This document shows positions 15,455 to 58,374 of a stretch of DNA of 64,000 nt, one piece after another (within the stretch, counting starts at the first letter, position 1; each line of letters begins with the position of its first letter). The notes beneath the pieces are model-generated. The model ran no database searches. It saw only the letters and a list, made by a program, of their open reading frames with translations, and was not told where the DNA came from. The translations under genes and the position numbers were made by a program. Source of the stretch: an uncultured Rhodocyclaceae bacterium (GTDB lineage: Bacteria; Pseudomonadota; Gammaproteobacteria; Burkholderiales; Rhodocyclaceae); assembly GCA_907163225.1 (NCBI GenBank), contig OU015322.1:1651001-1715000 (forward strand), given 5' to 3'.

Positions 15455-15464
15455 TTTATTGCGG

Positions 15465-35745: not shown

Positions 35746-35952
35746 GTGCAAGGCGGAGAAGTGCTAACGATCAAGGACGTGGCGGCCCTGTTGAAGGTTG
35801 GTGAAAAGACCATCTACTCCATGGCGCAGGGCGGAGAGCTCCCCGCATTCAAGGTTAGGGGGCAATGGCGGTTCTCGCGAAAGGACCTCGATGCCTGGAT
35901 GGAGCAGCAGAAGCATTCAACCCAGGATTTTGGGGAAGGACAGAAGAAATGA
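35746..35952 (+). CDS. mad1: MAD1-like helix-turn-helix protein
   Basis: The 68-residue protein is an excisionase/MerR-type HTH: LTIKDVAALLKVGEKTIYSM, then AQGGELPAFKVRGQWRFSRK and DLDAWMEQQ. It begins at a GTG with TAGGAGAGG upstream and opens the defence operon, 28 nt before the methylase. MADS loci, as I recall the family names, begin with a small HTH protein (MAD1) followed by a DNA methyltransferase (MAD2), as here. It may regulate the operon or bind the methylated site; the role is not shown. Confidence 0.75.
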   Translation: MQGGEVLTIKDVAALLKVGEKTIYSMAQGGELPAFKVRGQWRFSRKDLDAWMEQQKHSTQDFGEGQKK

Positions 35953-35980
35953 CCAAAACAACAATTCTACGGAGCACCCA

Positions 35981-37984
35981 ATGAGCCGGAAAAAAGATCA
36001 AGCCCACGCTGAGGGTACTATTCCGGCTGGGTACACACTTGATTACGTAGCGGGAAAACAGGTCAAGGAAACGCCAAAGGAACTGGTGCGACAAAGGATT
36101 ATTCGTGCCCTGATCCATGAATACGGTTTCTCGCCCGAAGACATGGAGTTGGATTTTTCTCTTGGTGGGCGCAAAAAAGTGGATGTGGCCATCTTCCATC
36201 ATGACAAGGGGCACACGATTGAGAATCTCGGTCGCGCTGTGCTCTGTCGGCCGGAACCTAATGTCGGCAAAAATGCCGCCCGTATTCGCGATTTCGAGCA
36301 GGCCGCCAAGGATCTGGATGAGATCGAGACCATCATGCGCGAGGTCAGTGCCATTCAGTACGGCTTGTGGACTAACGGACTGGAATTCTTCTTTATCGAG
36401 AAGGAGCAGAAGCGCTTCGAAACCAAGTGCACTCCGATTGGCGATTGGCCTATGGCGGAAGAGTCGGTCGGCACCAAAGATGTGATATCTGACGCGCATA
36501 CTCGCGTCGCCGATACCGAAATGCTGAAGATCACTTTCCGTCGCTGCCATAACTTCATTCATGGTAACGAGGGAATGCCCAAGGATGCTGCCTTCTGGCA
36601 GTTCCTTTATTTGATATTCTGCAAAATGCACGATGAGAACTTGCGTGGAAAGCAGCGCCAAGCCTGGCAGCGTCGCTTCTGGGCTGGCCCGAAAGAGCAG
36701 TTTGAGGATGAAGGCCGCAAGGCCATTCGCAAGCGCATCGAGGAGCTCTTCGACGAGGTCAAGAGCCAATTCAAGAATATCTTCCGGGGCAACGAAGAAA
36801 TTGCCCTCTCCGACCGAGCTCTGGCATTCATTGTTTCAGAGTTGGCTAAATACGACTTTACCCGCACCGATGTTGATGCCAAAGGCGTCGCTTATCAGGA
36901 GTTAGTGGGCGTCAACCTGCGTGGCGACCGTGGTCAGTATTTCACCCCTCGAGGTGTGGTAAAGCTGGTCGTCGAAATGCTCGACCCCAAGGAATCTGAG
37001 ACGTTGCTGGACCCGGCTTGTGGTACTGGCGGATTCCTCGTTGCGACCCTGGGCCACATGCTGAAGAAATTCAGAGCGGAACAGCAAACCCAGCCAGGGA
37101 ATGAGAACACCACCGAATTCTTGAACGTCCACGAGCAACTGAAAGAATATGCCGCTGCCAACGTTTTTGGAGCCGATTTCGATCCCTTCCTGATCCGTGC
37201 CGCCCAGATGAACATGGTGTTGGCAGGTGATGGACGTGGGCACATCTACAACATCAATTCGCTGGAGTTTCCTCTGGGGCATTTGGCCGACCTTCCAGGT
37301 GCCAAGAAAGAAATCCCGTTGGGCTCGGTGGATATCATCGCCACCAATCCGCCCTTCGGCTCAGACATTCCGATTACCGATAAGCACATTCTTGAGCAGT
37401 ACGAACTGGCGCATAACTGGGAGCCAGACGGCGAAGGCGGTTTCCGCAATACCGGTACTCCCAAGGGTAGCGTCGCTCCTGAAATTCTCTTCATCGAGCG
37501 CTGTATCAAGTGGCTCAAGCCGGGTACTGGACGTCTCGGCATCGTTCTGCCCGACGGTGTGCTGGGCAACCCCGCCGCCGAATACATCCGCTGGTGGATC
37601 ATGCGCGAAACACAAGTGCTCGCCTCCGTGGATCTGCCTGTAGAGGCTTTCATTGCCGAGGCTAATGTCAACATCCTTACCAGTTTGCTGTTCCTGCGTC
37701 GCAAGAGCGAGGAAGAAAAGCGTGCGGAAGCACTTGGCGGCGTGGAGGAGTACCCGGTTTTCATGGCAGTTGCCGACAAGGTTGGTTTTGATCGCCGTGG
37801 CAACAAACTTTACAAGCGCACGCCAGACGGCGAAGAGATCCTCGAGCCCAGGCAATTCACGGAGCGATTCCACCGCAAGAGTGGTTGGGTGGAGCGAACT
37901 CTTACCCGGCAGGAAAAAATCGAGGACAACGATCTGCCGGTCATCGCAGCGAAGTACCGCGAATTTCTCAAGGAACACAACTGA
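35981..37984 (+). CDS. mad2: MAD2-like N6-adenine DNA methyltransferase
   Basis: The 667-residue protein begins with an HsdR-N-like domain (~residues 30-150: VDVAIFHHDKGHTIENLG, with a degenerate nuclease site). A helical region and an HsdM-type methylase domain follow. SAM motif I is LLDPACGTGGFLVATLG (~344) and catalytic motif IV is IIATNPPFGSD (NPPF, ~455), both intact. It should methylate adenine at a site chosen by the HsdS-like subunit downstream, marking self DNA. ATG at 35981 has GGAG upstream. Its stop overlaps the next start by one base (TGATG). Confidence 0.87.
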   Translation: MSRKKDQAHAEGTIPAGYTLDYVAGKQVKETPKELVRQRIIRALIHEYGFSPEDMELDFSLGGRKKVDVAIFHHDKGHTIENLGRAVLCRPEPNVGKNAARIRDFEQAAKDLDEIETIMREVSAIQYGLWTNGLEFFFIEKEQKRFETKCTPIGDWPMAEESVGTKDVISDAHTRVADTEMLKITFRRCHNFIHGNEGMPKDAAFWQFLYLIFCKMHDENLRGKQRQAWQRRFWAGPKEQFEDEGRKAIRKRIEELFDEVKSQFKNIFRGNEEIALSDRALAFIVSELAKYDFTRTDVDAKGVAYQELVGVNLRGDRGQYFTPRGVVKLVVEMLDPKESETLLDPACGTGGFLVATLGHMLKKFRAEQQTQPGNENTTEFLNVHEQLKEYAAANVFGADFDPFLIRAAQMNMVLAGDGRGHIYNINSLEFPLGHLADLPGAKKEIPLGSVDIIATNPPFGSDIPITDKHILEQYELAHNWEPDGEGGFRNTGTPKGSVAPEILFIERCIKWLKPGTGRLGIVLPDGVLGNPAAEYIRWWIMRETQVLASVDLPVEAFIAEANVNILTSLLFLRRKSEEEKRAEALGGVEEYPVFMAVADKVGFDRRGNKLYKRTPDGEEILEPRQFTERFHRKSGWVERTLTRQEKIEDNDLPVIAAKYREFLKEHN

Positions 37985-39894
37985 TGTGCGACCAGGAAGA
38001 TGACCTCATTGAGACTCCTCAGGGTGCTGCGGAAGAAAGTGGTCCGGACAATTTTTTCATCGACATCCTGACCGGCAATAAGGAAAGCGCTTCCCCAAAG
38101 AAGCTACTTGTGCAGAAGGTGCTGCGCCAGCTCATCGAGAGCTACGGGTTTGACCGGGACGATCTGGCGGTGAGCTACAACCCTCAGATAGCCGGCCAGG
38201 GACGCAGGCGCATCGATATCGCGATTTTCCGTCCCAACGCCGAGCACAACAACGACAACCTGCAGCGCATTATCGTCTGCAGGACTCAAAAGAAACGCGA
38301 CAAGCTTCGCTCGATTGCCGAGGCTGACGCCGATCTGCGCGAACTCAAAGAACTTCTGGAACTGATCCCTGGTGCATCACTCGGCATGTGGACCAATGGC
38401 CAGGAAGAATTCATGTTCCAGGTCGAGCGTACCCGGTTCGAAGTGCGGGCCAAGCCCCTCGGGGTCTGGCCGGTACCGGGTGAGCGCACCACCGATCTCG
38501 AAAGAACCGGCGGGGTCATCCAGGTCAGTGCCGAAGCCGAGAACCTGGAAGATGCACTGCTGCGCTGCCGCCAGTACCTGAACCGCAACCTCGGTCTCGA
38601 CCACAAGGATTCCTTCAAGCAGCTGGCCGTGCTGATGCTGGCCAAGATCTATGACGAGACTCGGCCCACCGGAGAACGCAAGTTCTGGATCAAAGGCGAT
38701 GAACCCTTTACCGAGGTGGGCCAACAGGCGATTGCGCAGCGTATCAATGAAACCATTACTGCCGCCAAGGCCTGGCAGCCAAACCTGCTGACTCGTGGTT
38801 GGGATCTGACGCTGGAGCCCAATGAGACCGCCCGCGTAGTCATGGAGTTGGCGCGCTACTCACTCAGCGAAACCCAGCCTCGCTTCCGAACCGGCGCCTT
38901 CCGGGCAGTTGCTCGCAGCGTTATGGACGGACGCGAAGGCCGTTACCCCACTCCGCTCAATGTTGCTGAAATGGCCGTGGAGATGCTTGATCCCAAACCT
39001 GGCGAACGCATCATGGATTGCTCCAGCGGCACCGGCACCTTTCTGGCCATGACCGCCGTTCACATCTTTAAGCAGAAGCTCGCAGTCCTCGGTACCACGC
39101 CGGAGGAAGCGACCAGCGAGCAAATCCGCCAGGCTCAAAATGAAACCGCCGCGTGGGCAGCCAGCAACGCCCTGGGCTGCGACATCGACCCCTTCCTGGC
39201 CGTTGCCAGCAGGATGAATCTGCTGTTCACCACCGGCAATCCTGGACGCGTGTTTCGCATTGATGCTCGCACCTTCCCGGATGGCGATCTGGATGGCATC
39301 GAGACTGCCCGTCCGGCCTTGCCGCTGGGCAGCATGGATGCGGTTCTACTTAACCCCTGGTTTTCCACGCAAGATACCGTAAGCGACAACTCCATCCTAC
39401 AGCGCTATGAACTCGGGCATAACTGGACACCGGATGGCGAGGGTGGATATCGCAATGCAGGTGACCTGAATACTGCTGGCGTTCCACCGGAGGTGTTGTT
39501 CATCGAGCGCGCCTTACAGTGGGTTAAGCCTGGCACCGGTCGCGTGGGCATCCTGTTGCCCGATGGGCTGTTGGGCAATCCCGGAGATGAAAATATACGC
39601 TGGTGGATTCTGCGTCACTGCGAAGTGCTGGCCAGTGTCGACCTGCCGGTGGAGCCGTTCAAGGTTACGGTCAAGGAATACGGCTTGACGCCTGCCTTGC
39701 CTAGTCTGCTAGTGCTGCGTCGCCGCAGCCAGGATGAGCTCATTAATACCGAGCACCTCGAATACAAGGTGTTTATGGCCGTGGTAGATCGGGCCGGTGT
39801 TGATGCCCGAGGAAATCACCTCTTCCGACGCGCCCCTGACGGTGAAGAGAAGTGGCCCCGTGCAGTTGGACAGAAATTCGGTTTTCTTAGGTGA
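37984..39894 (+). pseudogene. Second methylase paralogue, catalytically degenerate, 3' end cut by IS
   Basis: The frame is colinear with the upstream methylase: an HsdR-N-like domain (RRRIDIAIFRPNAEHN), then the methylase fold and the shared LFIERALQWVKPGTGR and LPDGLLGNPGDENIRWW. But motif I reads MDCSSGTGTFLA instead of DPACGTG and motif IV reads LLNPWFST instead of NPPF. It probably lacked activity even when intact, acting as a structural partner. After PDGE (~residue 621) the sequence enters IS DNA (39849), adding ~13 foreign codons to a stop. The paralogue continues ~48 residues beyond this point. Whether the truncated protein works is unknown. Confidence 0.8.
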
Positions 39895-39906
39895 TTTCTC
39901 TGCGGG

Positions 39907-40734
39907 TTAAGCCGCTGCGGCGAGCAGCGACGGGTTGAAGTAAGCCGTATCCGGGGTTAGCCCGTCAAGGGATGAATGCGGACGACGCCGATTGTAAAAA
40001 TCGAAATAGCGAGCCAGTGCCTGCCTGACCTCGGAAACGGTTTCGTAGCCGTGCAGATATATTTCTTCGTACTTGACCGATTTCCAGAGGCGCTCAACGA
40101 AGACGTTATCCCGCCAACAACCTTTGCCATCCATGCTGACCTGAATCCTGAGCTCCTGAAGCAAGCCAATGAAGGCGGAGCTGGTGAATTGGCTGCCTTG
40201 GTCTGTGTTCATGATTTCCGGCTTGCCGTATTTCATGATGGCCTCTTCCAGCGCATCGACACAGGGATCGGCGGTCAGGCTGTTTGACAGGCGCCACGCC
40301 AGCACCCGGCGAGTGGCCCAGTCGAGCACGGCGCTCAGATAGACGAAGCCCCGGCGCATTGGAATGTAGGTGGTATCCATCGCCCAGACCTGGTTCGGAC
40401 GGTCGATGCTGAGATTCCGCAGCAGATAGGGATAAATGCGGTGTGCCTGGTTGCGCCGGCTGGTGTTGGCTTTGCGGTAGATGGCCTGGATGTCGAGCTT
40501 CTTCATCAGCGTGCCGACATGCTTGCGACCGATCTCATGTCCTTCCAGCTTGAGCATGTCACGCAGCATCCGCGCCCCGGCGAAGGGATGCTCCAGGTGC
40601 AGTTCATCGATTCGCCGCATCAGCCGCAGGTCAACTTCGGGCGTTGGTTGCGGCAGGTAATAGACGGAGGAGCGAGAGAGTTCCAGCAATTGCGCCTGCC
40701 GCACGACAGGCAACTCGTGGTTCTTGTCGATCAT
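39907..40734 (-). CDS. IS3-family transposase OrfB (DDE catalytic)
   Basis: The 275-residue protein has the HTH_21 segment ([20 protein letters not shown]) and an rve integrase core. DDE residues are in [27 protein letters not shown] and [14 protein letters not shown]. All three acidic residues are present. The ATG at 40734 overlaps the orfA stop (ATGA); IS3 elements usually make an OrfAB fusion by -1 frameshifting in this overlap. The product looks intact, so the IS may still be mobile. Confidence 0.92.
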
Positions 40735-41033
40735 CGTTTTGCGCTCGCATCGCCGATGCGACCGAGCGCGACGGCCAAAAAATCGATTTCCAGCGCCTGC
40801 TGGCCAATCTTTGCGTGCAAGTCTTTCAGATCTGGCGTTGCTGACTGCTTCTCGGCAGCCGTGGCGAAGACGCCGGAGGCGTTCTCCAGCAGTTGCGTCT
40901 TCCACTGGGTAATCTGGTTCGGATGAACATCAAACTTCTCCGCTAACGCGGCCAGCGTCTCATCGCCCTTGAGGGCGGCGATCGCCACTTTCGCCTTGAA
41001 GGTGGCTGTGTGGTTACGGCGGGGTCTTCTCAT
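40731..41033 (-). CDS. IS3-family transposase OrfA (HTH)
   Basis: The 100-residue protein starts [20 protein letters not shown] and has the HTH_Tnp_1 fold ([20 protein letters not shown]) plus a leucine-zipper-like C-terminal helix. It binds the element ends and pairs with OrfB. Length is typical for IS3-family OrfA. Confidence 0.92.
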
Positions 41034-41139
41034 TGCTTCTGCTCCTTGGCAGGCGATTTACATCGCCCATTGAAGCAGAGAATTCACTTAACCGGATGTC
41101 CGGATTCGCGGAGCCACTTCTCTTGATTGTGGTCCTTAT

Positions 41140-42465
41140 ATGTCAGGCGCGATGGAAGCGCGCGCAATAATTGAAAAACATCCAAATGAGCACTTACAGT
41201 GTTTAACACAGGGCGGGATGACAGGTCTCGTAAACGCAGGAAGAATCACGCGGCTGTGGGTTGATGATCCAGGCCATGGATTCAGGTTCCTTACCAGCAG
41301 TTCTATTCTGGACGCTGATTTGGACAACGTAAGCTTGATAGCAAAATCGGTGGCTCGTTCCAATCCAAGCCTTTTAATCGAAAAAAACTGGACGTTAATT
41401 ACTCGTTCTGGAACGATTGGCCGCATGGCGTATTCAACTGATGTTACACATGGGTTGGCATGCTCAGAGGATGTACTGCGCGTTATCCCTGATAGCAATC
41501 GCGTAAAACCAGGGTATCTCTTCGCTTATTTGAGTTCCAAGTTTGGTGTTCCCCTCGTTGTTTCTGGAACATATGGATCGATCATTACTCACCTGGAGCC
41601 TGGCCATATATCTGAGCTATTGGTTCCTCGTATTGGGCCTGTTGAAGAAGAGGCTCATGACTTAATCGAGAGTTCTGCAAAAGCCCACTCAGAGTCAGTA
41701 GTGCTAAGAAAACAAGCCGGAAATTTGGTAAACCAAATCTGTGACTTCCCCGAGAAATTAGCGGTTTCGGCACGTGTTTTCGCCTACTCACAAGCAATTT
41801 CAACTCAAGTGTTGAAGCGGCTTGATGCGACATTTCACAATCCTATCGCGCAAGAAGCAGAAGCCTTAACCAACGCGGCTAACGGCATTTCTCTAACAGC
41901 TGCCGGCGTAAGTGGTTTTGAATCCAATCGCTTGAAGCAGATTTTTGTCGAAGAGGGATATGGCACACCATTTATCACAAGCGGAGGTGTCTTTTCGAAA
42001 ACCATCACACCGGAGCGTTATCTCAGGAATCAACTCCTTGGAGAGGATGAGTCGTGGCGCATTAATGAATATGACAGTCTAATTGCACGCAGCGGCCAAG
42101 TGGGGGGGATCATTGGCAGGGGTGTATGGGCTGACAGCCGGTTGGACGGTTTTGCCGCTTCCCCGCACATTCTGAGATTGCGCCCTACGAATCAGGATTT
42201 TCCGCCTGGATACGTCTATGCGTTTTTATGCCTCACGGACGTTGGATACCAATTGTTGGTTAGAACGGCTGCTGGTAGTTCTATCCCATTCCTGCCATTA
42301 GATGACGTACTTGAAATCAAGATTCCAACAAAGCCATCATTGCGGCAGCGTCAAGAAATCGATTCCTTGGTGAAGCGCTCCGGCGAGCTACGTAAGCAAT
42401 CACAAAAGCTAGAAATGCAAGCCGTGGCTCTCGTCGAAAGTGCTATTGAGGGCGGAGCGCGCTAA
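41140..42465 (+). CDS. mad5: HsdS-like specificity subunit (MAD5-like), N-terminus removed by IS
   Basis: The 441-residue frame has two target-recognition units. The first includes NWTLITRSGTIGRMAYSTDV (~90-110). The second begins RLDATFHNPIAQEAE (~230) and has SLIARSGQVGGIIG (~315). The frame stays open upstream of ATG 41140 and reads LDCGPY before it, resembling the RLDxxxYxP start of TRD units. The native start therefore lay a few codons further and was lost to the IS. Translation may now begin at 41140 or at MEAR. It should direct the methylase and effector to a bipartite DNA site. Confidence 0.78.
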   Translation: MSGAMEARAIIEKHPNEHLQCLTQGGMTGLVNAGRITRLWVDDPGHGFRFLTSSSILDADLDNVSLIAKSVARSNPSLLIEKNWTLITRSGTIGRMAYSTDVTHGLACSEDVLRVIPDSNRVKPGYLFAYLSSKFGVPLVVSGTYGSIITHLEPGHISELLVPRIGPVEEEAHDLIESSAKAHSESVVLRKQAGNLVNQICDFPEKLAVSARVFAYSQAISTQVLKRLDATFHNPIAQEAEALTNAANGISLTAAGVSGFESNRLKQIFVEEGYGTPFITSGGVFSKTITPERYLRNQLLGEDESWRINEYDSLIARSGQVGGIIGRGVWADSRLDGFAASPHILRLRPTNQDFPPGYVYAFLCLTDVGYQLLVRTAAGSSIPFLPLDDVLEIKIPTKPSLRQRQEIDSLVKRSGELRKQSQKLEMQAVALVESAIEGGAR

Positions 42466-46616: not shown

Positions 46617-48288
46617 GGGCAGAGACAAAGAATTCAGAATTCCCAAGGTTTCCTACCTGGACTTCAAGCACATTGAGATGGATCGTGTGCTGACGATGCT
46701 GTTTCCTCGGCTGAAATATGACGGCTATGCAAGCCGCAGACCCCCACGCGGAGGCGATCTATCGGTAGATGAGTTTCTGGCGGATTTTCTGGAACATCCC
46801 GAGTGGTTTTCTGGGTTTGATCAACATCCTGATGTTGTCCGAAGCTGGATAGAAACCGATCTGATGGACTTGGTGAATCGAGGCAAGAGCAATCAAGCCT
46901 TGGCTGCGCCGAGGCCACTACACGGGAATACCTATAAGTTTCGTAACGCGAAGCACACCCGCGACTACGGAGCTGCGGAACAAACGTACTGGATGCTTTT
47001 TTATGCCCGCAAGGGAAAGGGACAGGCGGCTCGCGACGCTCTGAGGAGATTCTTTTTCCCTGGAGTCGACCTGGTAACAGACCGCTACGATCCTAGTGCT
47101 TCAGTTGATGTGGAGACGCAGGCAATCCTGCGTCTGGATCACCAAGTTACCCAGGACATGAAAGACTCCAAAGAGCCCTCGCGATTCCAGCCACTATGCA
47201 TCGGCCAGGCTGACATTATGGCGGATGACATTCTGCGGCTGCTTGCTTACGAGCCATACATCCCTCGCTCCGTGCTGGTGGACTACCTCAAGACACTGAT
47301 GGCATTCCACCTGGCGCTTTACCACCTCAAACTGTTGCAGATGCTTCCCAAGCTGGTAAAGCAACGTGCCGGTAATGATCTCTGCGCAACGAAGGAGTGC
47401 CCGATCAACCCCGGCATGGACAATGCCATGGAAGGCTGTCCCTACCGCGTCGCGTTGGTAGTGGACATGGGTGATTTGAACAACCCAGACATGGCTGAGC
47501 TGGCTCGCAAGTCTACTGACCGTCTGTATCGCCAGATCCCCGCCTTTGTGCAGGCCAATTTCGTCGTCAAAAAACTCGATGAAATGGCGGAATACCTGAG
47601 CAAGAAAACCGGCAAGCTGGCCTCGCCAGCCAACGGGACATTCTCTGTCGGTGATCTCGTTGCCCTGTTAAAACCCGAACACGATATTGAACGACAAGCA
47701 TACTTCAAATTCCGCCTGGCCAGCCTGATCGAAGAGTCCTCTTCCGGGAGCGAGGATGTTGATCCAGAAATCCGCGCAGTGACTGCGATGGGCCTTGGGG
47801 AATTTGAATCCTTCATCGAAATCTTGATGGCCTATCGTGGCAAATACCATCGTCAGTACATCACCGAATGCCTGGACTCCCTGTTGTTGAAAAACAAAGA
47901 GACGGGGCTTTTGGCCCAGTCCCGTACCAAGGGCAGTGCTCGCCGATTCGTGTTGGGCAGCAAGCTGCTTGAGGTACTCCTCCAGATTGCCGTGCTGACT
48001 CAGGATGGTGGGCGATTTGTCACTCGGGAAGTGCGTATCGAGGAACTGTTGGGATTCCTGAGAAACCGTTATGGCCTCCATATTGACCGACTACCAGAAA
48101 GCGGCCAGAGCAATAGCAGCATTCTGGACCGGCGAGCTTTGCGCTTGAATCTAGAAGCCTTCAAGCGTCGGCTGCGCGAAATCGGTTTCTATGAGGATCT
48201 GTCGGATGCCTACGTGACCCAGAAGGTGTCTCCACGCTATGCAATTGAGAGAAGCAATGGAACGGAAAAGAAAGGGAAGCGCGCATGA
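46606..48288 (+). CDS. mad7: MAD7-like defence protein
   Basis: The 560-residue protein has no catalytic motif that I recognise. Features are a basic N-terminus (MSIKGRDKEFRIPKVSYLDF), a mostly helical body, and a possible metal site around NDLCATKECPINPGM and EGCPYRVALV (four Cys, ~265-290). It overlaps mad6 by 11 nt and mad8 by 4 nt, so the three are translated together. Its size and place between a P-loop protein and a giant HerA-like ATPase mirror DndG/DptG in the phosphorothioate restriction module DndFGH. It is probably an obligate partner of those ATPases; that is inference. Confidence 0.75.
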   Translation: MSIKGRDKEFRIPKVSYLDFKHIEMDRVLTMLFPRLKYDGYASRRPPRGGDLSVDEFLADFLEHPEWFSGFDQHPDVVRSWIETDLMDLVNRGKSNQALAAPRPLHGNTYKFRNAKHTRDYGAAEQTYWMLFYARKGKGQAARDALRRFFFPGVDLVTDRYDPSASVDVETQAILRLDHQVTQDMKDSKEPSRFQPLCIGQADIMADDILRLLAYEPYIPRSVLVDYLKTLMAFHLALYHLKLLQMLPKLVKQRAGNDLCATKECPINPGMDNAMEGCPYRVALVVDMGDLNNPDMAELARKSTDRLYRQIPAFVQANFVVKKLDEMAEYLSKKTGKLASPANGTFSVGDLVALLKPEHDIERQAYFKFRLASLIEESSSGSEDVDPEIRAVTAMGLGEFESFIEILMAYRGKYHRQYITECLDSLLLKNKETGLLAQSRTKGSARRFVLGSKLLEVLLQIAVLTQDGGRFVTREVRIEELLGFLRNRYGLHIDRLPESGQSNSSILDRRALRLNLEAFKRRLREIGFYEDLSDAYVTQKVSPRYAIERSNGTEKKGKRA

Positions 48289-51200
48289 GCGACGCGTTCA
48301 CTAGACTGGCACAGGGAAAGCTGAACGCGGCGGTAGCAGGCCTGTTGTGCCCTCGTATCGAGTCAATACTGAGCGATCGTGGCCCAGGCCACTGCATGCG
48401 AGTTACCGACCTTGACGACGATGTGATGGAGTCGGTTTGTAAAGAGCTGCGCCGAACTCGCCCTGATGGGAATATCTTCATCCTTGGTGGCCACGACCAG
48501 GAAGGTATGCCTTTTCGGGTGACATCCACCAAGCTGGTGGAGCTGCGAAATCCAGATGCGAATGGTGAGCTGCGCCAGCCTCTCCTGGTTTTCATTCCAA
48601 CATCTTTGCGCACCAGCGCCGAGGACTCCTTCGGCGTGGCCACATTCGAAGACCTGACCTTTACGGCGATTTACGAAGATCTGACCAATCTGCTGCTTAA
48701 TCGACTACCTGCAACCCTGCTTGGCCACGTGCGTGACCTCTTTGGATTCATTGCAGAAGAAGCGTGGCTTTTTGCTGATGACGTTTCCCGCGTTAGATAT
48801 CTGCTCACGGCGCTAGAAAATGGAATTGACGGAGAAACGCTCGGAGCCAGCTTGTATGAATTGACGTTGATTCCCGACTTCAAGCTTTTTGCTGACCTTG
48901 GCATGGTCAACAGCAAGATCCGACGGAACCTGGGCAGCGTTCGAAATCTGATGGCCTCTCACAAATCCGTGCGTGGACGCATCGCGGATTTGGGGCTCAG
49001 TGATAAGGCACTGGAAGCATCACTGTCTAGCTACTTTGAAAAATACGACATCCAAGAACCGGAATCTTGGACTGCGCCCATCGCAACGGACAAAAACTGG
49101 TGGGGTATTTCATTTGATAAATGGACTTTCCAAGAAGAGCTCTCTCTCGATAAAGTTTTGCTGACAGTCTTGGAAACCGATTTGCCGATCGTTCAGGAGA
49201 ATGAAACCAGCGACCAGCTATCTGGCCTCATCGGACAGCAAATATTAGTTCCTAACGATCGCCGCAAGATGAATCTGGTTTTTGAGGTCACCCCTCACCC
49301 AGCTAAAGTCAGTGGGCTGGATCACTTTACGGTTCAGATCGTTTCCCAGAACGATGGCCCGGTCGGAAAATCAAAGAAGGTCAAAGCCTGGACACCAAAC
49401 CGGCTGCAATGCACCGTTACTCTGGACAAGCTCAACAAGATTGAGTTTGAGGAAGGTTGGCACTTTATTCGGGTTCTTCCTTGGACGGTTGACGGTGATC
49501 CGATTCCGCTAGAGGCGGATTCGGGCTCTAAAGCTGCCAAGCGTTCGTACGAGAGTGAGCCATTCTATGTCCTTCCAGGTGGAAGCATTGAGGAAGAGCC
49601 GCCTCAGCGGGCGATACCAATTGAGCAAAGCCTCGAGCACGCGCGGTTCCGATTACAGCTTATCGCCCTGGGTGACGAGCGCAATCCCGATGAAATAACG
49701 CTAAGTAGTGTTAATTGGGCAGAAGGCGGTCGTTCCAAAAAAGCATCACGCCAAGAATTGCTACTAGCAAAGTTTGGCCATGAGGGTGCGGTGCAAATTC
49801 CTATGTCGCGCATGCTCAAGACAATCGAGCAGCGGATATTGGCAGAACCAAAGCATCCGTCTGGCTGGCGCATGCAGATTAATCTCGATGCGGCTGAACT
49901 GCCTTCAGAAGTGGGGTTGACGCTGCCTACTTCTGCCGCCATGGCATCGTTCTTGGCTGCTAGGGAAGAACTATTCGCTGCCATACGTAAAGATGAGGCG
50001 GAATTGATTATGCAGGGGCTCGCCTTCCGAGATACTGAGAAGGAGTGCCTTGCTTACGCTGAAGCCTATCTTGACCTTGTACGGAATCTCATTCGACAGG
50101 CTGAAATTTCATCGGGCGCTGAGCGTCAACAGCATCTCCAGGCGCTGCGCAATGTCCTTGCGGTGGATTCGTTACACGTGATCCTGACGGATTTTCGTGG
50201 CAGACACCGTGAAGCAGTTCTGGTCTCCCCCACACATCCACTTCGTACCTTGTGGCTAAACAGCTGGGTGACCCTGGGTAAAGATTGGATTGAAAAGATC
50301 AAGGCCGGCGGAAAAGATCACATCCCGCATGTCAGATCCGCATTGTTGGACAGCCTCGTTCCATCGGCATATCCGGTCGGGATTCCTGTAGAAGATGGCC
50401 GCATTTTCACGCCCGTCGACAATCTGAATGCTTTCTGGGCTCTGTACGCTCCCACTACTGAGGAAAACTCTCGAGGCCTAATGGCTGAGATTTGCTCCGC
50501 GCTAGGCCTGGCAGAACCGTCAGCAGCGGGAGCGGACATCTCTGGGAAAGTGATTGCAGACAAGATTGAGCGATATCTTTCCCAACATCCATATGTTCGT
50601 GAGTTATCGCTGAACGTGTTCAATGCTGGCGCCGGATCCGTCATCGCAGATGCATTGCTGTCGCTGCAACAGAAACGCGAACACGCGGATTTGCGCTACG
50701 ACGTTCGACTATTTACGTCCGACCCGGATTCTCCAGTACTGGGGGAGTCCATTGAATCGATGGTTCGTCCAGGATCTACTGTCAACGAGGTGGCAGACGC
50801 CTTTGCAACCTCGACCGGCAGTCACCTGTTCTCGAAACTGAATCTGGCTAAGCATGCCCTTTCGGAATTTCATGCGAATGCCAAGGCGTTCCCTGCCCAT
50901 ATTAGTGTGCTGCTGGATGTATTTCCTGCTGAGGAACTCTCTATCGCAGAGAAGCCGATGGGAGTCACACCACTTCATGGACTGATTCAGGACTTCAACA
51001 CTGAGTTTGTTGACGATAACTCGGGAACCTACTGGAACAAACGACCGGTTGTCGGTCGCTCGCTCAATTCCGATAGCCAGGCGGCTTGCTTTGACTTGCT
51101 TTCAAACTTGAGCCGCCACATCTGCTTCGCCACCGCAGCTGTTGCAGCCTCAGGGGCCAGCTTCAAGTCAGTGCCTGTCGTGACCTTAGGTTTAGATGTT

Positions 51201-53750
51201 GCTCAACGAGAACTAATCTATGAAGTCCATCAAATCAGCGATTGGGTATTCACCATTGATCGCAACATGGGGATTGAGTTTTTCGACCATGGCGGCCGGA
51301 AAAACAGGCCTGATTACCTTATCGACTACGTTCCTGGAGCCAGTTCTCAGGCTACCCACAACCTAATTATTTCCTCGCGCTCAAGCGATGAGCTCGAGGC
51401 GATGTTGAAGCCGGTCCTGCTCGGACACGGACTCTCGGCTGATGGCGAGCAATCGGTTCAGATTCTGGCAAACCTACGTTCGCTCTCTGGGCAGCTCGCA
51501 TTGAAGCTGATATCTGCGCCGACGCAGCAGGCGGAAGCGCTAGGCCTGGCTTTGGCTCGACTGTATCTCGAATATCAGGGTGCCTTGAGCAACCAAGTCA
51601 TTGTGCCTTTGGATGCGCATACGGACCTTTACCGCTCAAACGGTGAAGCGGACGATGTCAACGATGCCATTAGCCTGCAACGCACCGACTTGGGACTGTT
51701 CGACTTGGATTTGAACACCAGGACGATCACCTGCAACTTGGTCGAGGTGAAATGCTACTCGCAGGTCGGTGACTTTGCGGCCTATAACCAGTTGAAGGAG
51801 CGGGTTTCCGCTCAAATCAATCAGAGTGAGCGCATTCTGCAACGCCACTTTGATCCGGCGCTAAAAAAACCGGATCGGCCAGACCGACTTCTCAAAAGCC
51901 GGGAGTTGGCACAGATTCTTCGGTTCTATCTTGAGCGCTCCCTGCGGTACGGAATTTTTGACATAGTTGCCGCACAAGAATCACGAGGCCTGCTCGAGTC
52001 AATTGAGCAGGGATATTCGCTTCAGTTCCGACGTTCCGCACTGATCTTCGACTTCGATAAGAATGGGACAGATGCACCTGACAAAGAGGTCGGCATCGAA
52101 TTTCACCGCATCGGCAAGGATCTCATTCACGCCTTGTTAGAGAACTGCCGCAAGCCTGTTTCCGTTGAGACTGAAGAGGAACCGATCGCGCACCCCCTGA
52201 GCGAACAATTCATAGCGAACGTACCGAAGCTCGAGACAGCTGCTTTTATTGCGCCCAAGAGAGCCAGGTCAACATCCTGGACGATGGATGAATTCTGGGG
52301 CGAAGAGCCGAAGGCTCCAATTACCCAGCCAACAGATCCTGCGGTAAAGGAAACATCCGCACCTGCCCAAGAGCAAATGGAAGAACAGGCGGAACCCGTC
52401 GAGCAAGCGCCTCGACCTTCCACCATCGCGCCTACAGAAGGAAAAGAAGCCGAACAGCCCGCTGCCGTTGCTGTTGAACCGGAAGCACCTGTTCAACCCG
52501 AGCATGAAGCGCAGGAGCATCCGACACCCGAGCCTGCGCGTCAAACCGAAGTCAGCTATGACATCATGCTGGGTGTTAATGGTGAATCGCCGCAGTACGG
52601 TTTGCTCGGAGAGGTCTCCGGCAGAAAGATCGCTCTGGACCTCAACCACACCCACACGATCAGTCTCTTTGGGGTTCAAGGCGGCGGCAAGAGCTATACA
52701 CTTGGAACAGTCATTGAGATGGCCTCTATGCCGCTTCAGCACATCAATGTGCTGCCAAGCCCGCTCGCCACGGTCATTTTCCATTACAGCCCGACGCAGG
52801 ATTATGCGCCGGAGTTTACCTCGATGATCAATGCCAACTCGGTGGATGAGGAGGTCCGCATCCTTCGTGAGCGTTACAAGGCCAACCCCGAAGCCCTGCA
52901 GGATGTCCTGATTCTTACCCCGGCAAACAAGGTGGATGATCGCCGGGCCGAGTACCCGGATATCGAGGTTAAGCCGATTGCTTTTTCTGCCTCCGAACTC
53001 AAGGCGGCGCACTGGAAATTCCTGATGGGAGCGATTGGCAGCCAGAGCATGTATATGCGGCAAATCAATCTCATCATGAGGGGGCTGCGGGACAACCTGA
53101 CCTTGGATGCCCTGCGAGCAGGCATCGATAACTCTGGTCTGTCCGATCACCTGAAAGAGCTGGCCCAGATACGTCTACTATTCGCCAGCGAATATATAGA
53201 TGATAGCCAGCGGCTCCAGGATCTGATTCGTCCAGGCCGGTTGATCATCGTGGATCTGCGAGATGAATACATCGAAAAGGACGAGGCCCTCGGTCTGTTC
53301 GTAGTGATGCTGCAGATTTTCTCGGAAGCAACCTACCAGGGAAGCGCCTTCAACAAGCTAGTGGTATTTGACGAGGCGCATAAATACATCGAAAACGATG
53401 ATCTCGTTTCCGGGTTGGTGGAAGTCGTGCGTGAGATGCGACATAAAGGAACCAGCATCATGGTTGCCTCTCAAGACCCGCCATCGGTCCCGGTATCTCT
53501 GATCGAACTATCCTCGCAGATCATCATGCACAAGTTCAATTCACCAGCGTGGCTGAAACATATTCAGAAGGCGAATGCTGCGCTCGGCGAGCTTACCTCC
53601 GACAAGATGAGTCACCTTGGCACTGGAGAGGCTTATGTTTGGTCGAGCAAGGCATCCGATGATTTGTTCTCGCGCGGTGCTGTAAAGATCAAGTGCCGCC
53701 CGCGTATTACTCGGCACGGCGGTGGAACAAAAACGGCAATCCCCGAATAA
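48285..53750 (+). CDS. mad8: MAD8-like giant ATPase with C-terminal HerA/FtsK-type domain
   Basis: The 1821-residue protein has a large N-terminal part (~1-1330) without known motifs. A Pro/Glu/Ala-rich flexible linker (~1345-1425) follows, and then a HerA-type ATPase: Walker A SLFGVQGGGKSYTLGTV (~1463), Walker B LVVFDEAHKYIEND (~1690), sensor MVASQDPPSV and an arginine-finger-like region near the end. HerA/FtsK ATPases translocate DNA as hexamers. In Dnd-type systems the large DndH/DptH ATPase has this layout. It probably moves along unmarked invader DNA and powers restriction. Coupled to mad7 (ATGA). Confidence 0.83.
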   Translation: MSDAFTRLAQGKLNAAVAGLLCPRIESILSDRGPGHCMRVTDLDDDVMESVCKELRRTRPDGNIFILGGHDQEGMPFRVTSTKLVELRNPDANGELRQPLLVFIPTSLRTSAEDSFGVATFEDLTFTAIYEDLTNLLLNRLPATLLGHVRDLFGFIAEEAWLFADDVSRVRYLLTALENGIDGETLGASLYELTLIPDFKLFADLGMVNSKIRRNLGSVRNLMASHKSVRGRIADLGLSDKALEASLSSYFEKYDIQEPESWTAPIATDKNWWGISFDKWTFQEELSLDKVLLTVLETDLPIVQENETSDQLSGLIGQQILVPNDRRKMNLVFEVTPHPAKVSGLDHFTVQIVSQNDGPVGKSKKVKAWTPNRLQCTVTLDKLNKIEFEEGWHFIRVLPWTVDGDPIPLEADSGSKAAKRSYESEPFYVLPGGSIEEEPPQRAIPIEQSLEHARFRLQLIALGDERNPDEITLSSVNWAEGGRSKKASRQELLLAKFGHEGAVQIPMSRMLKTIEQRILAEPKHPSGWRMQINLDAAELPSEVGLTLPTSAAMASFLAAREELFAAIRKDEAELIMQGLAFRDTEKECLAYAEAYLDLVRNLIRQAEISSGAERQQHLQALRNVLAVDSLHVILTDFRGRHREAVLVSPTHPLRTLWLNSWVTLGKDWIEKIKAGGKDHIPHVRSALLDSLVPSAYPVGIPVEDGRIFTPVDNLNAFWALYAPTTEENSRGLMAEICSALGLAEPSAAGADISGKVIADKIERYLSQHPYVRELSLNVFNAGAGSVIADALLSLQQKREHADLRYDVRLFTSDPDSPVLGESIESMVRPGSTVNEVADAFATSTGSHLFSKLNLAKHALSEFHANAKAFPAHISVLLDVFPAEELSIAEKPMGVTPLHGLIQDFNTEFVDDNSGTYWNKRPVVGRSLNSDSQAACFDLLSNLSRHICFATAAVAASGASFKSVPVVTLGLDVAQRELIYEVHQISDWVFTIDRNMGIEFFDHGGRKNRPDYLIDYVPGASSQATHNLIISSRSSDELEAMLKPVLLGHGLSADGEQSVQILANLRSLSGQLALKLISAPTQQAEALGLALARLYLEYQGALSNQVIVPLDAHTDLYRSNGEADDVNDAISLQRTDLGLFDLDLNTRTITCNLVEVKCYSQVGDFAAYNQLKERVSAQINQSERILQRHFDPALKKPDRPDRLLKSRELAQILRFYLERSLRYGIFDIVAAQESRGLLESIEQGYSLQFRRSALIFDFDKNGTDAPDKEVGIEFHRIGKDLIHALLENCRKPVSVETEEEPIAHPLSEQFIANVPKLETAAFIAPKRARSTSWTMDEFWGEEPKAPITQPTDPAVKETSAPAQEQMEEQAEPVEQAPRPSTIAPTEGKEAEQPAAVAVEPEAPVQPEHEAQEHPTPEPARQTEVSYDIMLGVNGESPQYGLLGEVSGRKIALDLNHTHTISLFGVQGGGKSYTLGTVIEMASMPLQHINVLPSPLATVIFHYSPTQDYAPEFTSMINANSVDEEVRILRERYKANPEALQDVLILTPANKVDDRRAEYPDIEVKPIAFSASELKAAHWKFLMGAIGSQSMYMRQINLIMRGLRDNLTLDALRAGIDNSGLSDHLKELAQIRLLFASEYIDDSQRLQDLIRPGRLIIVDLRDEYIEKDEALGLFVVMLQIFSEATYQGSAFNKLVVFDEAHKYIENDDLVSGLVEVVREMRHKGTSIMVASQDPPSVPVSLIELSSQIIMHKFNSPAWLKHIQKANAALGELTSDKMSHLGTGEAYVWSSKASDDLFSRGAVKIKCRPRITRHGGGTKTAIPE

Positions 53751-53791
53751 CCTTGAAATGATCTTGCCTGATGGAAAACTGGACTTGAACG

Positions 53792-55891
53792 ATGAAGGCT
53801 GAGGATACCCATGTAACAAATCTGCTTGAGGGAGCGAAGCAGTTCATTGTTCCGATTTTCCAGCGTGACTACAGCTGGGGCACCAAGCATTGCCAGCAGT
53901 TGTGGAGGGATGTGATTCGCGTCGGCAGCGACCCTAAGGTCAAGGGGCACTTCCTCGGGTCAGTCGTTTATGTGGCAGCCGAGGACAACACAGCGACGAT
54001 TACGCGCTGGTTGCTGATCGATGGCCAGCAACGGATGACGACACTGACGCTGCTGTTGATCGCACTACGGGATCAAATGAATCAGGTGCAGGGAAATGGT
54101 GATGGCGGTGACGAGGTGTCTACGCCGGAAGAGCTGGATGACTATTTTCTGCGCAACCGGCATGGCAAGGGCGACAGACGTCACAAGCTGCACTTGCGCC
54201 GGGCCGACCACGAAACGCTAACCGCCTTGTTGGACGGCAAAGACATTCCCGATGCGGCCTCAGAGCGGGTGAAGGAGAATTTTCTGTTCCTACGCGATCT
54301 GGTGGCTCAGGCCGATGTGCAGACGGTGTACGCCGGCATCAAGAAGCTGGTGGTCGTCGATGTGAGTCTGACGCGTGGCCAGGACGACCCGCAGATGATC
54401 TTCGAGAGCCTGAATTCCACGGGCGTCGATCTGACCCAGGCCGATCTGATTCGCAACTTTGTGCTGATGCGCATGGACGAGTCCTCGCAGACACTGCTCT
54501 ATGAGGAGCATTGGCAGCCCATTGAGCAGGCCTTCGGGCGGCGTTACCGTACCGAGTTCGACAAATTCGTGAAGGACTTCCTGACGCTGCAAATGCGTCC
54601 CGGTACGCCACTGAAGGCAGCCGAGATTTATCACGAGTTTCGCAGCTTCTTCTCGCGCACCGTCGAAAAGCGTGGCGTCGAAGGCATCCTCAGCGATCTA
54701 CGTCGTTTCGGCACCTACTACACGGCATTCAGTCTTGGGCAGGAGAAGCAGCCTGCACTGAAGGAGGCGTTTGCTCGCCTGCGTTCCCTCGTCGAGGTGG
54801 CTTCGCCAGTCGTTCTGACACTCTACGATTACCACGAGCGGGCCAAGACCTTGGATGTCGAAGAGTTTGTAGAGGCCGTCGAACTCCTGGAAAGCTTCAT
54901 TTTCAGACGTTCGGTGTGCGATATGCAGACACGAAGCCTGGGGCAGATTTTTGCCAGTCTCGCCTATCGCATCACTGAAAGCCAACCACTACTGAGTCTT
55001 AAGGTGGCGTTGTACCGGCAAGGAAAGAAGCGACGATTTCCAACCGATGCCGAGTTCCGCGAGGCATTAGAGACCCGCGACGTCTACGACATGCGCACCT
55101 GCTTCTACCTGCTGGATCGACTGGAGAACTTCAGCAAAGAGCGCATCGACACCTCGAATTTCTCTATCGAACACGTCATGCCGCAGAACGAGGACTTGCG
55201 CTCGGAATGGCGAGCGATGCTCGGCAGCACTTGGCAGGCAGTGCAGGAAACGTGGCTCCACCGCCTCGGCAATCTGACGTTGACCGGTTATAACTCGACA
55301 TACAGCGATAGACCGTTTGGGGAAAAGAAAGCCATTGCCGGCGGTTTCAATGATAGCCCGCTACGCTTGAACAAGTTCATTCGCGAGCAATCTGCGTGGA
55401 ATGCCACTGCTATCGAACAGCGCGGCAAACTATTGGCTGAGAAGGCAATCGACGTCTGGCGGCCACTAGTAGTTGATCCATTGGCCGTGAAGCAGCGCGA
55501 GCTGGAAGACCACAAAGCGCTGGCAGCGAACTACAAAATCGAGAACCTGGAACTGGACAACACCGCGAAGAAGCTGCTGGAGGCTCTTCGGCCGCAGATC
55601 CAAGCGTTGGGCAATGAAGTAGTGGAGTTGCCCAACGACCGCAGCATCACCTACCGCGTGTTCGATTTCTTTGTCGAAATCATTCCGCGCAAGCAGCGAC
55701 TTACTCTCCTACTGAACCTCGATTTTGCCGACTGTGAAGATCCGTCTGGTAATGCCCGAGATGCAACGGAGTTCGCGTTCATCATCGGTGCAACCGAGGC
55801 CGGTGGTGTTCTTTATAACCTGGACTCTGAAGGTGACGTGCCAGCAGCGATCAACGTGGTTCGTCAAGCATATGAGCGGGTGACTGAGTGA
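53792..55891 (+). CDS. GmrSD-like DUF262/DUF1524 nuclease
   Basis: The 699-residue protein has DUF262 (IVPIFQRDYSWGTKHCQQLW at ~20; LLIDGQQRMTTLTLLLIALR at ~75, with the NTP-binding DGQQR). A DUF1524 His-Me finger nuclease follows (FSIEHVMPQNEDLRSEW, ~459; LGNLTLTGYNSTYSDRPFG). A C-terminal DUF5655-like domain (FVEIIPRKQRLTLLLNLDF) ends it. GmrSD-type proteins cut modified or specific DNA using nucleotide energy. It follows mad8 by 41 nt in the same direction and probably belongs to the operon as an added effector. No strong Shine-Dalgarno was seen. Confidence 0.88.
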   Translation: MKAEDTHVTNLLEGAKQFIVPIFQRDYSWGTKHCQQLWRDVIRVGSDPKVKGHFLGSVVYVAAEDNTATITRWLLIDGQQRMTTLTLLLIALRDQMNQVQGNGDGGDEVSTPEELDDYFLRNRHGKGDRRHKLHLRRADHETLTALLDGKDIPDAASERVKENFLFLRDLVAQADVQTVYAGIKKLVVVDVSLTRGQDDPQMIFESLNSTGVDLTQADLIRNFVLMRMDESSQTLLYEEHWQPIEQAFGRRYRTEFDKFVKDFLTLQMRPGTPLKAAEIYHEFRSFFSRTVEKRGVEGILSDLRRFGTYYTAFSLGQEKQPALKEAFARLRSLVEVASPVVLTLYDYHERAKTLDVEEFVEAVELLESFIFRRSVCDMQTRSLGQIFASLAYRITESQPLLSLKVALYRQGKKRRFPTDAEFREALETRDVYDMRTCFYLLDRLENFSKERIDTSNFSIEHVMPQNEDLRSEWRAMLGSTWQAVQETWLHRLGNLTLTGYNSTYSDRPFGEKKAIAGGFNDSPLRLNKFIREQSAWNATAIEQRGKLLAEKAIDVWRPLVVDPLAVKQRELEDHKALAANYKIENLELDNTAKKLLEALRPQIQALGNEVVELPNDRSITYRVFDFFVEIIPRKQRLTLLLNLDFADCEDPSGNARDATEFAFIIGATEAGGVLYNLDSEGDVPAAINVVRQAYERVTE

Positions 55892-57126: not shown

Positions 57127-57143
57127 GATGTTTCCTCTCAAAT

Positions 57144-57195
57144 AAAAAAACTCCCCACCGGCACTGGATGTATGTCCGGTTGCCTATGAGGAGTT
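57144..57195 (-). terminator. Terminator-like hairpin before the metal-binding gene
   Basis: AACTCC pairs with GGAGTT with internal GGCA/TGCC pairing, followed by seven T on the minus strand. It lies between the yqaJ-like stop and the next Shine-Dalgarno, so it either ends the former transcript or attenuates the latter. Confidence 0.55.
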
Positions 57196-57235
57196 GGTGG
57201 GTTGGGTACTGCTACGTTGGGTTTTCGGGGATGAA

Positions 57236-58243: not shown

Positions 58244-58305
58244 GATGTTCTCCAGAGTTTGGACAGGAATGCCAGAACGTGAATCCACTCGCGACCGCCA
58301 GACAA

Positions 58306-58338
58306 CAAAAAGCCCGGTCGGAAAATACCGAACCGGGC
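58306..58338 (-). terminator. Intrinsic terminator between DUF932 and yqaJ-like genes
   Basis: GCCCGGT/ACCGGGC stem with inner TCGG/CCGA pairing and TTTTTG on the minus strand. It is 36 nt after the DUF932 stop and 63 nt before the next start. Confidence 0.8.
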
Positions 58339-58374
58339 AATCGAGGGGGAAATGCTGAGGAAGCGAGAAGCGAA

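What the first reader, a model, noticed from the sequence alone, without database searches (positions are those of the whole stretch)
35746..55891. Eight-gene MADS-like defence operon with an extra methylase and an added GmrSD nuclease
Seen: one-direction operon with overlapping or near-touching genes encoding HTH, N6-methylase, second methylase paralogue, HsdS, NERD/kinase/ATPase, partner, HerA-type ATPase and DUF262/DUF1524 nuclease. Known: MADS combines a HTH (MAD1), methyltransferase (MAD2), HsdS (MAD5), kinase (MAD6), MAD7 and ATPase (MAD8), as I recall the names. Inference: here the MAD3/MAD4 slot is taken by a methylase paralogue, and GmrSD is added at the end, so this is a distinct variant.
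Basis: partly seen in the sequence, partly recalled or inferred. Interest (0 to 1): 0.82.

Follow-up and report, generated by a model that had tools for sequence, protein, structure and literature searches.

The report
Two-methylase variant of MADS phage defence
This is a bacterial anti-phage gene cluster of the known MADS kind in which two usual genes are replaced by a second, oddly altered copy of its DNA-marking enzyme; the same swap recurs in bacteria of several phyla, while the extra nuclease at the end looks like a local add-on and this particular copy is damaged by a jumping gene.

Summary
The eight genes are real and lie where stated. Curated models call them MADS: MAD1, MAD2, MAD6, MAD7 and MAD8 pass NCBIfam cut-offs; MAD5 misses by 4 bits in a copy whose start is lost. 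MAD3 and MAD4 are absent. In their slot sits M2, a MAD2 paralogue. This is recurrent: of 69 loci, 61 show the slot, with M2 in 25, MAD3+MAD4 in 25, nothing in 8, other genes in 3; none has both. M2 proteins group together, apart from all M1. All 24 readable M2 have NPWF where all 56 M1 examined have NPPF, with further fixed changes at motifs X and I. M2 is under purifying selection. I read it as a non-standard, probably silent partner in an M1·M2·HsdS marking complex; a PacII-like active M2 is the main rival. GmrSD is not part of the conserved variant: MAD8's 3' neighbour differs between loci. MAD8 carries a nearly invariant PD-(D/E)xK-like signature before its HerA ATPase, and MAD6 a NERD signature plus an intact kinase: candidate effectors. 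Here an insertion sequence replaced 200-215 bp, removing the end of M2 and the start of HsdS, so this copy is probably impaired. All biochemistry is inferred.

The parts
35245..35595 (-). XRE-type HTH regulator, divergent from the operon
   Evidence: HTH_31/HTH_3; homologues in the same divergent place in L024, L037, L038 and, partly cut or beside HTH/M1, in L029, L033, L045, L048
35746..35952 (+). MAD1, excisionase-like HTH protein, 68 aa
   Evidence: NCBIfam antiphage_MADS1 84.7 bits, cut-off 80
35981..37984 (+). M1 = MAD2, N6-adenine methylase with HSDR_N_2 N-terminus, NPPF motif
   Evidence: NCBIfam antiphage_MADS2 1016.3 bits, cut-off 720; PADLOC mad2 297.8 bits; N6_Mtase
37984..39894 (+). 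M2, MAD2 paralogue with NPWF motif, in the MAD3/MAD4 slot; C-terminus lost, last codons come from the insertion sequence
   Evidence: 39% identical to M1; antiphage_MADS2 754.5 bits, cut-off 720; motifs; truncation
39849..41121 (-). insertion sequence, IS3-type judged by its transposase domains, replacing 200-215 bp of the M2/HsdS junction
   Evidence: transposase ORFs 39907-40905 and 40731-41033; rve, rve_3, HTH_21 in the first; boundaries from alignment to relatives
41140..42465 (+). MAD5, HsdS-like specificity subunit, N-terminus lost
   Evidence: antiphage_MADS5 395.7 bits, cut-off 400, match starts at profile position 24; PADLOC mad5 126.1 bits
42465..46616 (+). MAD6, NERD nuclease-like domain plus degenerate and intact Ser/Thr kinase domains
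   Evidence: antiphage_MADS6 857.7 bits, cut-off 460; catalytic residues
46606..48288 (+). MAD7, 560 aa, no fold match in PDB at E<=0.001
   Evidence: antiphage_MADS7 676.9 bits, cut-off 410; AlphaFold2 pLDDT 84.2; Foldseek
48285..53750 (+). MAD8, PD-(D/E)xK-like nuclease signature followed by HerA-type ATPase
   Evidence: antiphage_MADS8 232.6 bits, cut-off 175; PADLOC mad8 141.2 bits, HerA and DndH weak; conserved residues
53792..55891 (+). GmrSD-family fused type IV restriction endonuclease with DUF5655; accessory neighbour, not part of the conserved variant
   Evidence: GmrSD_N, GmrSD_C, DUF5655; PADLOC Orf5 631.6 bits; DGQQR and IEHVMPQ motifs present

Best explanation
A MADS anti-phage system of a two-methylase type (M2-type). 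Shown: gene content, orthology to MADS, one M2 lineage with fixed motif changes, purifying selection on M2, fast variation of HsdS, conserved nuclease/kinase/ATPase signatures in MAD6 and MAD8, and IS damage in this copy. Inferred: M1, M2 and HsdS form a heterotrimer like a type I methylase. M1 methylates adenine at sites chosen by HsdS, while M2 binds DNA and cofactor as a structural or checkpoint subunit that does not carry out the standard reaction, because of NPWF. DNA lacking the mark is passed to the MAD6-MAD7-MAD8 arm; the kinase relays the signal, and the MAD8 nuclease with its HerA motor (perhaps also the MAD6 NERD domain) restricts. M2 replaces the ATPase/Toprim-type pair MAD3-MAD4. 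GmrSD is a co-located type IV nuclease that may complement it against phages with modified DNA. (MADS membership alone I hold at about 0.95; the confidence below is for the M2 mechanism.)
For: MADS membership: NCBIfam MAD1, 2, 6, 7, 8 over cut-off; PADLOC mad2, 5, 6, 7, 8. M2 in the MAD3/MAD4 slot in 25 of 61 loci with a visible slot, never with both. Core tree (MAD6+MAD7+MAD8, 54 loci): a clade of 30 with SH-aLRT 100 holds all 25 M2 loci. 24 M2 and 56 M1 rows lie on two sides of one branch, support 100. Motif IV NPWFS 24 of 24 against NPPFG 56 of 56; motif X Q-[YF]-F-T-P-[RK] in 56 of 56 M1 against R-Y-P-T-P-L in 24 of 24 M2. M2 dN/dS 0.05-0.15 in 11 pairs I chose, some with saturated dS. HsdS 31-70% identical to the window where M1, M2, MAD6-8 are 76-98% (16-17 relatives per gene). 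A profile search with M2 in 399 genomes of the order (two candidates scored per genome) gave M2-level matches (over 1,290 bits) only in this genome and in two whose M2 lies in a MADS locus. MAD8 D1135, E1154, K1156, Q1177 in 59 of 59, D1140 in 58; MAD6 NERD D48 and K63 and kinase D625, K627, N630 in 60 of 60. M2's model matches PacII M1M2S and EcoKI M. PacII is a precedent for M1/M2/S heterotrimers (PMC9613975, passages).
Against: No biochemistry or methylome. M2 keeps the Asn, first Pro and Phe of motif IV, GTG of motif I (24 of 24) and the first motif II acidic residue (D 23, E 1), so it may be active. The M2 model is weak (pLDDT 62.1, pTM 0.59). M2 is dispensable over evolution: 36 of 61 loci lack it (25 MAD3+MAD4, 8 empty, 3 other), and L038 lacks it inside the M2 clade with the other genes kept, so M1 and HsdS evidently can do without it. 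Heterotrimer formation is untested.
Confidence: 0.5

Rival explanations
1. M2 is an active methylase with altered chemistry or target base: the locus encodes a PacII-like M1M2S enzyme that marks the two strands differently (for example m6A by M1, m4C by M2) inside a MADS system.
For: PacII-type systems pair an NPPF M1 with an NPPY M2 that makes m4C (PMC9613975, passages). M2 here keeps Asn, first Pro and Phe of motif IV and GTG of motif I in 24 of 24, keeps most of the motif II acidic segment, and is under purifying selection. Fold matches include PacII M1M2S.
Against: M2 has NPWF in 24 of 24, not NPPY; a Trp at the second Pro does not fit the [SDN]PP[FYW] motif given in PMC10853773 (passage). 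Motif I loses the Cys in 19 of 24 and the second Gly in 24 of 24.
Confidence: 0.25
2. M2 is a decoy or guard, not part of marking: it sits in a slot otherwise held by the ATPase/Toprim-type pair MAD3-MAD4, a Fic protein or an AlbA-type protein, and soaks up or reports phage anti-restriction proteins that attack the M1-HsdS enzyme.
For: Slot contents vary, and M2 and MAD3+MAD4 never occur together in 61 loci. MAD3 of L007 also matches PARIS AriA, 88.6 bits. AriA senses phage Ocr, and MADS is named among systems with an ATPase/Toprim association in PMC12409363 (passages). Ocr and ArdA bind PacII M1M2S (PMC9613975, passage).
Against: No data on triggers. M2 lies between M1 and HsdS in all 25 M2 loci, which a subunit would also explain. 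8 of 61 loci have nothing in the slot.
Confidence: 0.15
3. GmrSD is an integral ninth subunit that supplies the restriction activity of this variant.
For: Same strand, about 42 bp behind MAD8, domains and motifs intact. [quoted passage not shown] L048 also has one 27 bp behind MAD8.
Against: tblastn at over 50 bits found GmrSD in only 2 of 65 locus entries (L048, L087; several entries end soon after MAD8), and none in the IMG/VR record. Close relatives have a PDC-S68-type helicase there. The best plasmid homologues are about 39% identical; their surroundings were not examined.
Confidence: 0.05
4. The locus belongs to another known system (BREX type 2/Pgl, Dnd or Ssp), or M2 is a decaying duplicate without function.
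For: MAD6 resembles PglW over residues 14-752, MAD8 weakly DndH, MAD7 weakly SspG; GmrSD also matches SspE at 62 bits. M2 is broken in L047 and a remnant in L037.
Against: PglW 217.9 bits against a cut-off of 990. No PglZ, BrxC or DndA-E match is shown for the ten proteins scanned (four of the lists show only the best 25). M2 is under purifying selection.
Confidence: 0.03

Closest known systems
MADS (methylation-associated defense system; Maestri et al. 2024, not held; cited in PMC12904381 and PMC11842806, passages)
   Same: MAD1, MAD2, MAD5, MAD6, MAD7, MAD8 in the same order and strand as in the Piscinibacter locus L007
   Different: MAD3 and MAD4 absent; a second MAD2 paralogue with NPWF in their place; GmrSD directly behind MAD8, otherwise seen (diverged) only in L048 among 43 loci listed
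Non-canonical type I M1M2S methylases (PacII; PMC9613975, abstract and passages)
   Same: two paralogous M subunits followed by one S; fold match 7vru/7vs4
   Different: PacII M2 has NPPY and makes m4C; here NPWF. No HsdR gene in the operon; MAD6-MAD7-MAD8 instead
DndFGH (PMC10853773, passages)
   Same: MAD8 has a PD-(D/E)xK-like signature followed by HerA, as DndH; NERD plus tandem inactive and active kinases occur in some DndF; DndH holds an inactive adenine methylase domain
   Different: separate methylase genes and HsdS; no phosphorothioate genes seen in the operon; the MAD8-DndH match is weak (E 3.5e-6)
PglW of BREX type 2 (PMC12839542, passages)
   Same: MAD6 N-terminal half NERD + pseudokinase + kinase
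   Different: no other BREX proteins seen in the operon; far below the PglW cut-off
PARIS AriA-AriB (PMC12409363, passages)
   Same: canonical MAD3-MAD4, which M2 replaces, is named there as an ATPase/Toprim association; MAD3 matches AriA
   Different: absent from this locus

Membership tests
MADS | MAD1 HTH | tested here: met
   84.7 bits, cut-off 80
MADS | MAD2 methylase | tested here: met
   M1 1016.3 and M2 754.5 bits, cut-off 720
MADS | MAD3 ATPase | tested here: not met
   no match over the cut-off in the whole genome; best 44.7 bits elsewhere, cut-off 420
MADS | MAD4 | tested here: not met
   no match in the whole genome, positive control G920 234 bits, cut-off 160
MADS | MAD5 specificity subunit | tested here: inconclusive
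   395.7 bits, cut-off 400; N-terminus removed by the IS
MADS | MAD6 kinase | tested here: met
   857.7 bits, cut-off 460
MADS | MAD7 | tested here: met
   676.9 bits, cut-off 410
MADS | MAD8 ATPase | tested here: met
   232.6 bits, cut-off 175
MADS | anti-phage activity and methylation-based self marking | not testable with these tools
   needs plaque assays and a methylome
PacII-type M1M2S methylase | two M paralogues and one S | tested here: met
   gene order M1-M2-S
PacII-type M1M2S methylase | M2 motif NPPY | tested here: not met
   NPWF in 24 of 24
PacII-type M1M2S methylase | m4C product | not testable with these tools
   needs a methylome
BREX type 2 | PglW over curated cut-off, with PglZ and BrxC | tested here: not met
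   PglW 217.9 bits, cut-off 990; no PglZ or BrxC shown for the ten proteins of the region (some lists capped); the rest of the genome was not searched for them
Dnd/Ssp | DndA-E or SspA-D modification genes in the operon | tested here: not met
   none shown for the ten proteins scanned (some lists capped); genome not searched
GmrSD type IV nuclease (53792-55891 alone) | GmrSD_N and GmrSD_C fused | tested here: met
   122.6 and 90.6 bits

The most novel reading that the evidence does not exclude
The gene slot between MAD2 and MAD5 is an exchangeable guard cassette that protects the marking enzyme from phage anti-restriction proteins. MAD3-MAD4 does this as a PARIS-like ATPase/Toprim alarm, and M2 does it as a dedicated pseudo-methylase decoy that has spread among phyla with the rest of the locus. 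The NPWF change would mark the loss of catalysis in favour of decoy binding.
Probability: 0.12. Interest if true: 0.8.

Novelty: new variant of a known kind. Interest (0 to 1): 0.5.

Why it matters
How MADS restricts phages is listed as unknown (PMC12904381, passage). A natural type that lacks MAD3-MAD4, and loci with nothing in that slot, show which genes can be absent, and point at MAD8 (PD-(D/E)xK-like plus HerA) and MAD6 (NERD plus kinase) as the conserved effector arm. The invariant NPWF paralogue gives a clean test of whether defence methylases use a non-catalytic partner. NCBIfam's MAD2 model takes M1 and two of the three M2 proteins tested over its cut-off, so present annotation hides the variant.

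Tried and rejected
Rejected: BREX type 2, Dnd and Ssp. Rejected: GmrSD as part of the conserved unit. Not followed: type IIB RM.BsaXI, the best sequence and fold match of M2, is a fused R-M protein and only shows the methylase fold. MAD7's fold search gave no match at E<=0.001, so the SspG link rests on E 6.9e-8. Phage records gave no MAD7 match (no positive control). M2 searches gave: 11 plasmid records, the best 37.6% identical and M1-like; no genome but the window's own in 369 of the class at E<=1e-60; one IMG/VR record. MAD7 was found in 5 of 398 genomes of the phylum, own included. The MADS paper (Maestri 2024) is not held; its gene list is recalled. Nothing I read describes M2 or NPWF in MADS. 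The searches were made, in an open-access library only, and most listed papers were not opened (for example PMC13293514, one hit for 'MADS-like'), so this does not show that it is unpublished.

Limits: the 63 genome loci came from a pattern scan seeded with five MAD7 proteins, window first, so frequencies are not a census. Many rows are metagenome bins, whose taxon labels may be wrong. The core tree is a quick one without bootstrap; the careful MAD7 tree keeps the same grouping except that L056 falls, weakly, between the two M2 subclades. 8 of 69 loci do not show the slot. Of 61 loci with an M1 hit (60 plus the window), 5 were left out of the motif counts for coverage under 85%. L047's M2 is broken into three frames, so it counts as an M2 locus but not as a motif row. 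An earlier motif script misread one row (L009); one search corrects it.
Full report
Anatomy. The window is bases 1651001-1715000 of a 3.46 Mb single-contig genome. The operon runs from 35746 to 55891 on the + strand. Pfam and PADLOC give N6-methylase (M1), second N6-methylase (M2), HsdS, NERD + kinases, MAD7, HerA-like MAD8 and GmrSD; the HTH gene was scanned. NCBIfam equivalog models, which carry curated cut-offs, name MAD1 (84.7, cut-off 80), MAD2 (M1 1016.3, window M2 754.5, cut-off 720), MAD6 (857.7, 460), MAD7 (676.9, 410) and MAD8 (232.6, 175). MAD5 reaches 395.7 with a cut-off of 400. So it is MADS.

What is missing. In the Piscinibacter plasmid L007 the slot between methylase and HsdS holds an AAA ATPase and a small protein that score 547.5 (cut-off 420) and 233.2 (cut-off 160) as MAD3 and MAD4. 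The window genome has no match over the MAD3 cut-off and no MAD4 match; the positive control G920 rang.

A recurrent variant. A scan of 84,980 genomes with a MAD7 alignment gave 63 loci. With the window, one IMG/VR contig, three plasmid loci and one genome locus (G267) there are 69 loci. The slot is visible in 61: M2 in 25, MAD3+MAD4 in 25, nothing in 8 (one of these, L053, with a 128-aa ORF), and in one each a Fic protein beside an M2 remnant (L037), another AAA gene with a 255-aa partner (L056) and an AlbA_2 protein (L084) (the AlbA_2 domain was scanned in L061's copy, and L084's looks alike). None has both M2 and MAD3+MAD4. Some loci hold a further gene beside M2 (L040, L052) or beside MAD3-MAD4 (L061). 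On a tree of MAD6+MAD7+MAD8 from 54 loci, 30 form one clade (SH-aLRT 100) with all 25 M2 loci, 2 MAD3+MAD4, 2 empty and the Fic locus; presence of M2 needs 6 changes. The careful MAD7 tree of 66 rows needs 5. So M2 is an old mark of a lineage in which the slot seems to have been exchanged or emptied several times.

M2 itself. M2 is 39% identical to M1, and all 24 readable M2 proteins fall on one side of a branch from 56 M1 proteins (support 100; the long M2 stem leaves the root unsure). At motif IV, M1 has NPPFG in 56 of 56 and M2 NPWFS in 24 of 24. At motif I, M1 has the Cys and a second Gly in 56 of 56; M2 has Thr or Ala for that Gly in 24 of 24 and Ser for the Cys in 19 of 24. At motif X, M1 has G-Q-[YF]-F-T-P-[RK] in 56 of 56 and M2 G-R-Y-P-T-P-L in 24 of 24; the first acidic residue of motif II is kept in all M2 (D 23, E 1) and the second in 21 of 24. 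The N-terminal HSDR_N_2 domain is shared. M2 is constrained: dN/dS 0.05-0.15 in 11 pairs, a little above M1 (0.02-0.07), with dS saturated in some pairs. HsdS is 31-70% identical to the window over 17 close relatives, whereas M1, M2 and MAD6-8 are 76-98%, as expected if HsdS sets a changing target. A search of 399 genomes of the same order with the M2 profile, scoring two candidates per genome, gave M2-level matches only in this genome and in two others. The M2 model (pLDDT 62.1) matches BsaXI, EcoKI M and PacII M1M2S.

How it may work. MAD8 has D1135, E1154, K1156 and Q1177 in 59 of 59 sequences and D1140 in 58, then Walker A K1469/S1470 in 59 and Walker B D1696/E1697 in 58 (one gap). This is a PD-(D/E)xK-like signature before a HerA ATPase, the order described for DndH (PMC10853773, passage); the nuclease reading rests on these residues alone, since no nuclease family matched MAD8 in Pfam. 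MAD6 has NERD D48 and K63 in 60 of 60, an intact second kinase (D625, K627, N630 in 60 of 60) and a first kinase domain in which I found none of the usual motifs in the window sequence. The same NERD-inactive-active kinase layout is described for PglW and some DndF (PMC12839542, passage). MAD7 is a confident model (pLDDT 84.2) with no PDB fold match. I infer that M1, M2 and HsdS mark host DNA and that MAD6-7-8 restrict unmarked DNA. PacII shows that M1/M2/S heterotrimers exist, with an NPPY M2 making m4C (PMC9613975). NPWF fits neither that nor the [SDN]PP[FYW] motif, so I favour a silent or altered partner, at even odds.

GmrSD. It keeps its motifs and lies about 42 bp behind MAD8, but it looks like a local neighbour. 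In the two closest relatives and in L035 a helicase stands there instead: 1227 aa in L025 and L035, and in L026 a 93.5% identical copy that ends after 840 aa, near the contig end. The L025 copy scores 1487.7 bits for PADLOC PDC-S68; the window has no match to it. L031 has a HARE-HTH/Mrr enzyme, and L048 a different GmrSD. Among the 43 loci whose MAD8 3' side I listed (three of them with under 600 bp left), only the window and L048 have GmrSD directly behind it. By tblastn a third, L087, has a GmrSD fragment about 1.25 kb beyond, near the contig end. This looks like a second exchangeable slot.

State of this copy. An insertion sequence lies at about 39849-41121. Six relatives agree on the left edge to within a base and on the right edge to within four, three of the six right-edge matches being weak. 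M2 lacks its last 40-50 residues and HsdS about its first 20; MAD5 aligns only from profile position 24. The system here is probably impaired; intact relatives exist.

Spread. MAD7 is 89-92% identical to the window's in named strains of Pseudoxanthomonas, Billgrantia, Atlantibacter, Massilia, Geomobilimonas, Solidesulfovibrio and Desulforhopalus, i.e. across Pseudomonadota and Thermodesulfobacteriota (labels). Bins labelled Verrucomicrobiota, Acidobacteriota, Chloroflexota and others add to this but could be mis-binned. Recent transfer of the whole locus is the simplest reading.

Verdict. A new variant of a known kind: M2-type MADS. Whether the M2 type is already described in the MADS paper could not be checked.

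Noticed in passing
35245-35595 (-): A divergent XRE regulator gene: of 12 other loci with at least 650 bp visible upstream of M1, 3 have it (L024, L037, L038, all in the M2 clade) and 9 do not (L053 inside the clade; L007, L008, L009, L017, L059, L060, L074, L081 outside). Shorter flanks in L029, L033, L045 and L048 also show it.
   Followed up: partly
L025 13742-17422; L035 and L026 behind MAD8: A PADLOC PDC-S68 candidate defence helicase sits directly behind MAD8 in close relatives.
   Followed up: partly
L037 2947-4423: A Fic-family protein in the MAD2-MAD5 slot next to an M2 N-terminal remnant, as if it had displaced M2.
   Followed up: partly
L063 and L066 behind MAD8: An ORF of 1317 aa that looks nearly the same follows MAD8 in both loci; not identified.
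   Followed up: no
14080-15540: Tyrosine integrase on the - strand next to a tRNA-Ala gene; with the Gp3-like directionality factor, YqaJ and DUF932 genes at 56212-59343 this suggests a mobile island around the operon.
   Followed up: no
60668-61351: FRG-domain gene beside a YfbU-domain gene (60106-60663), a possible further defence pair.
   Followed up: no
G880 (L102): In the same family as the window genome, an M1-like methylase (38%) and an HsdS-like gene (27%) without MAD6-8 hits in the 20 kb fetched.
   Followed up: no
46606-48288: MAD7 is predicted with good confidence but matches no solved fold at E<=0.001.
   Followed up: partly
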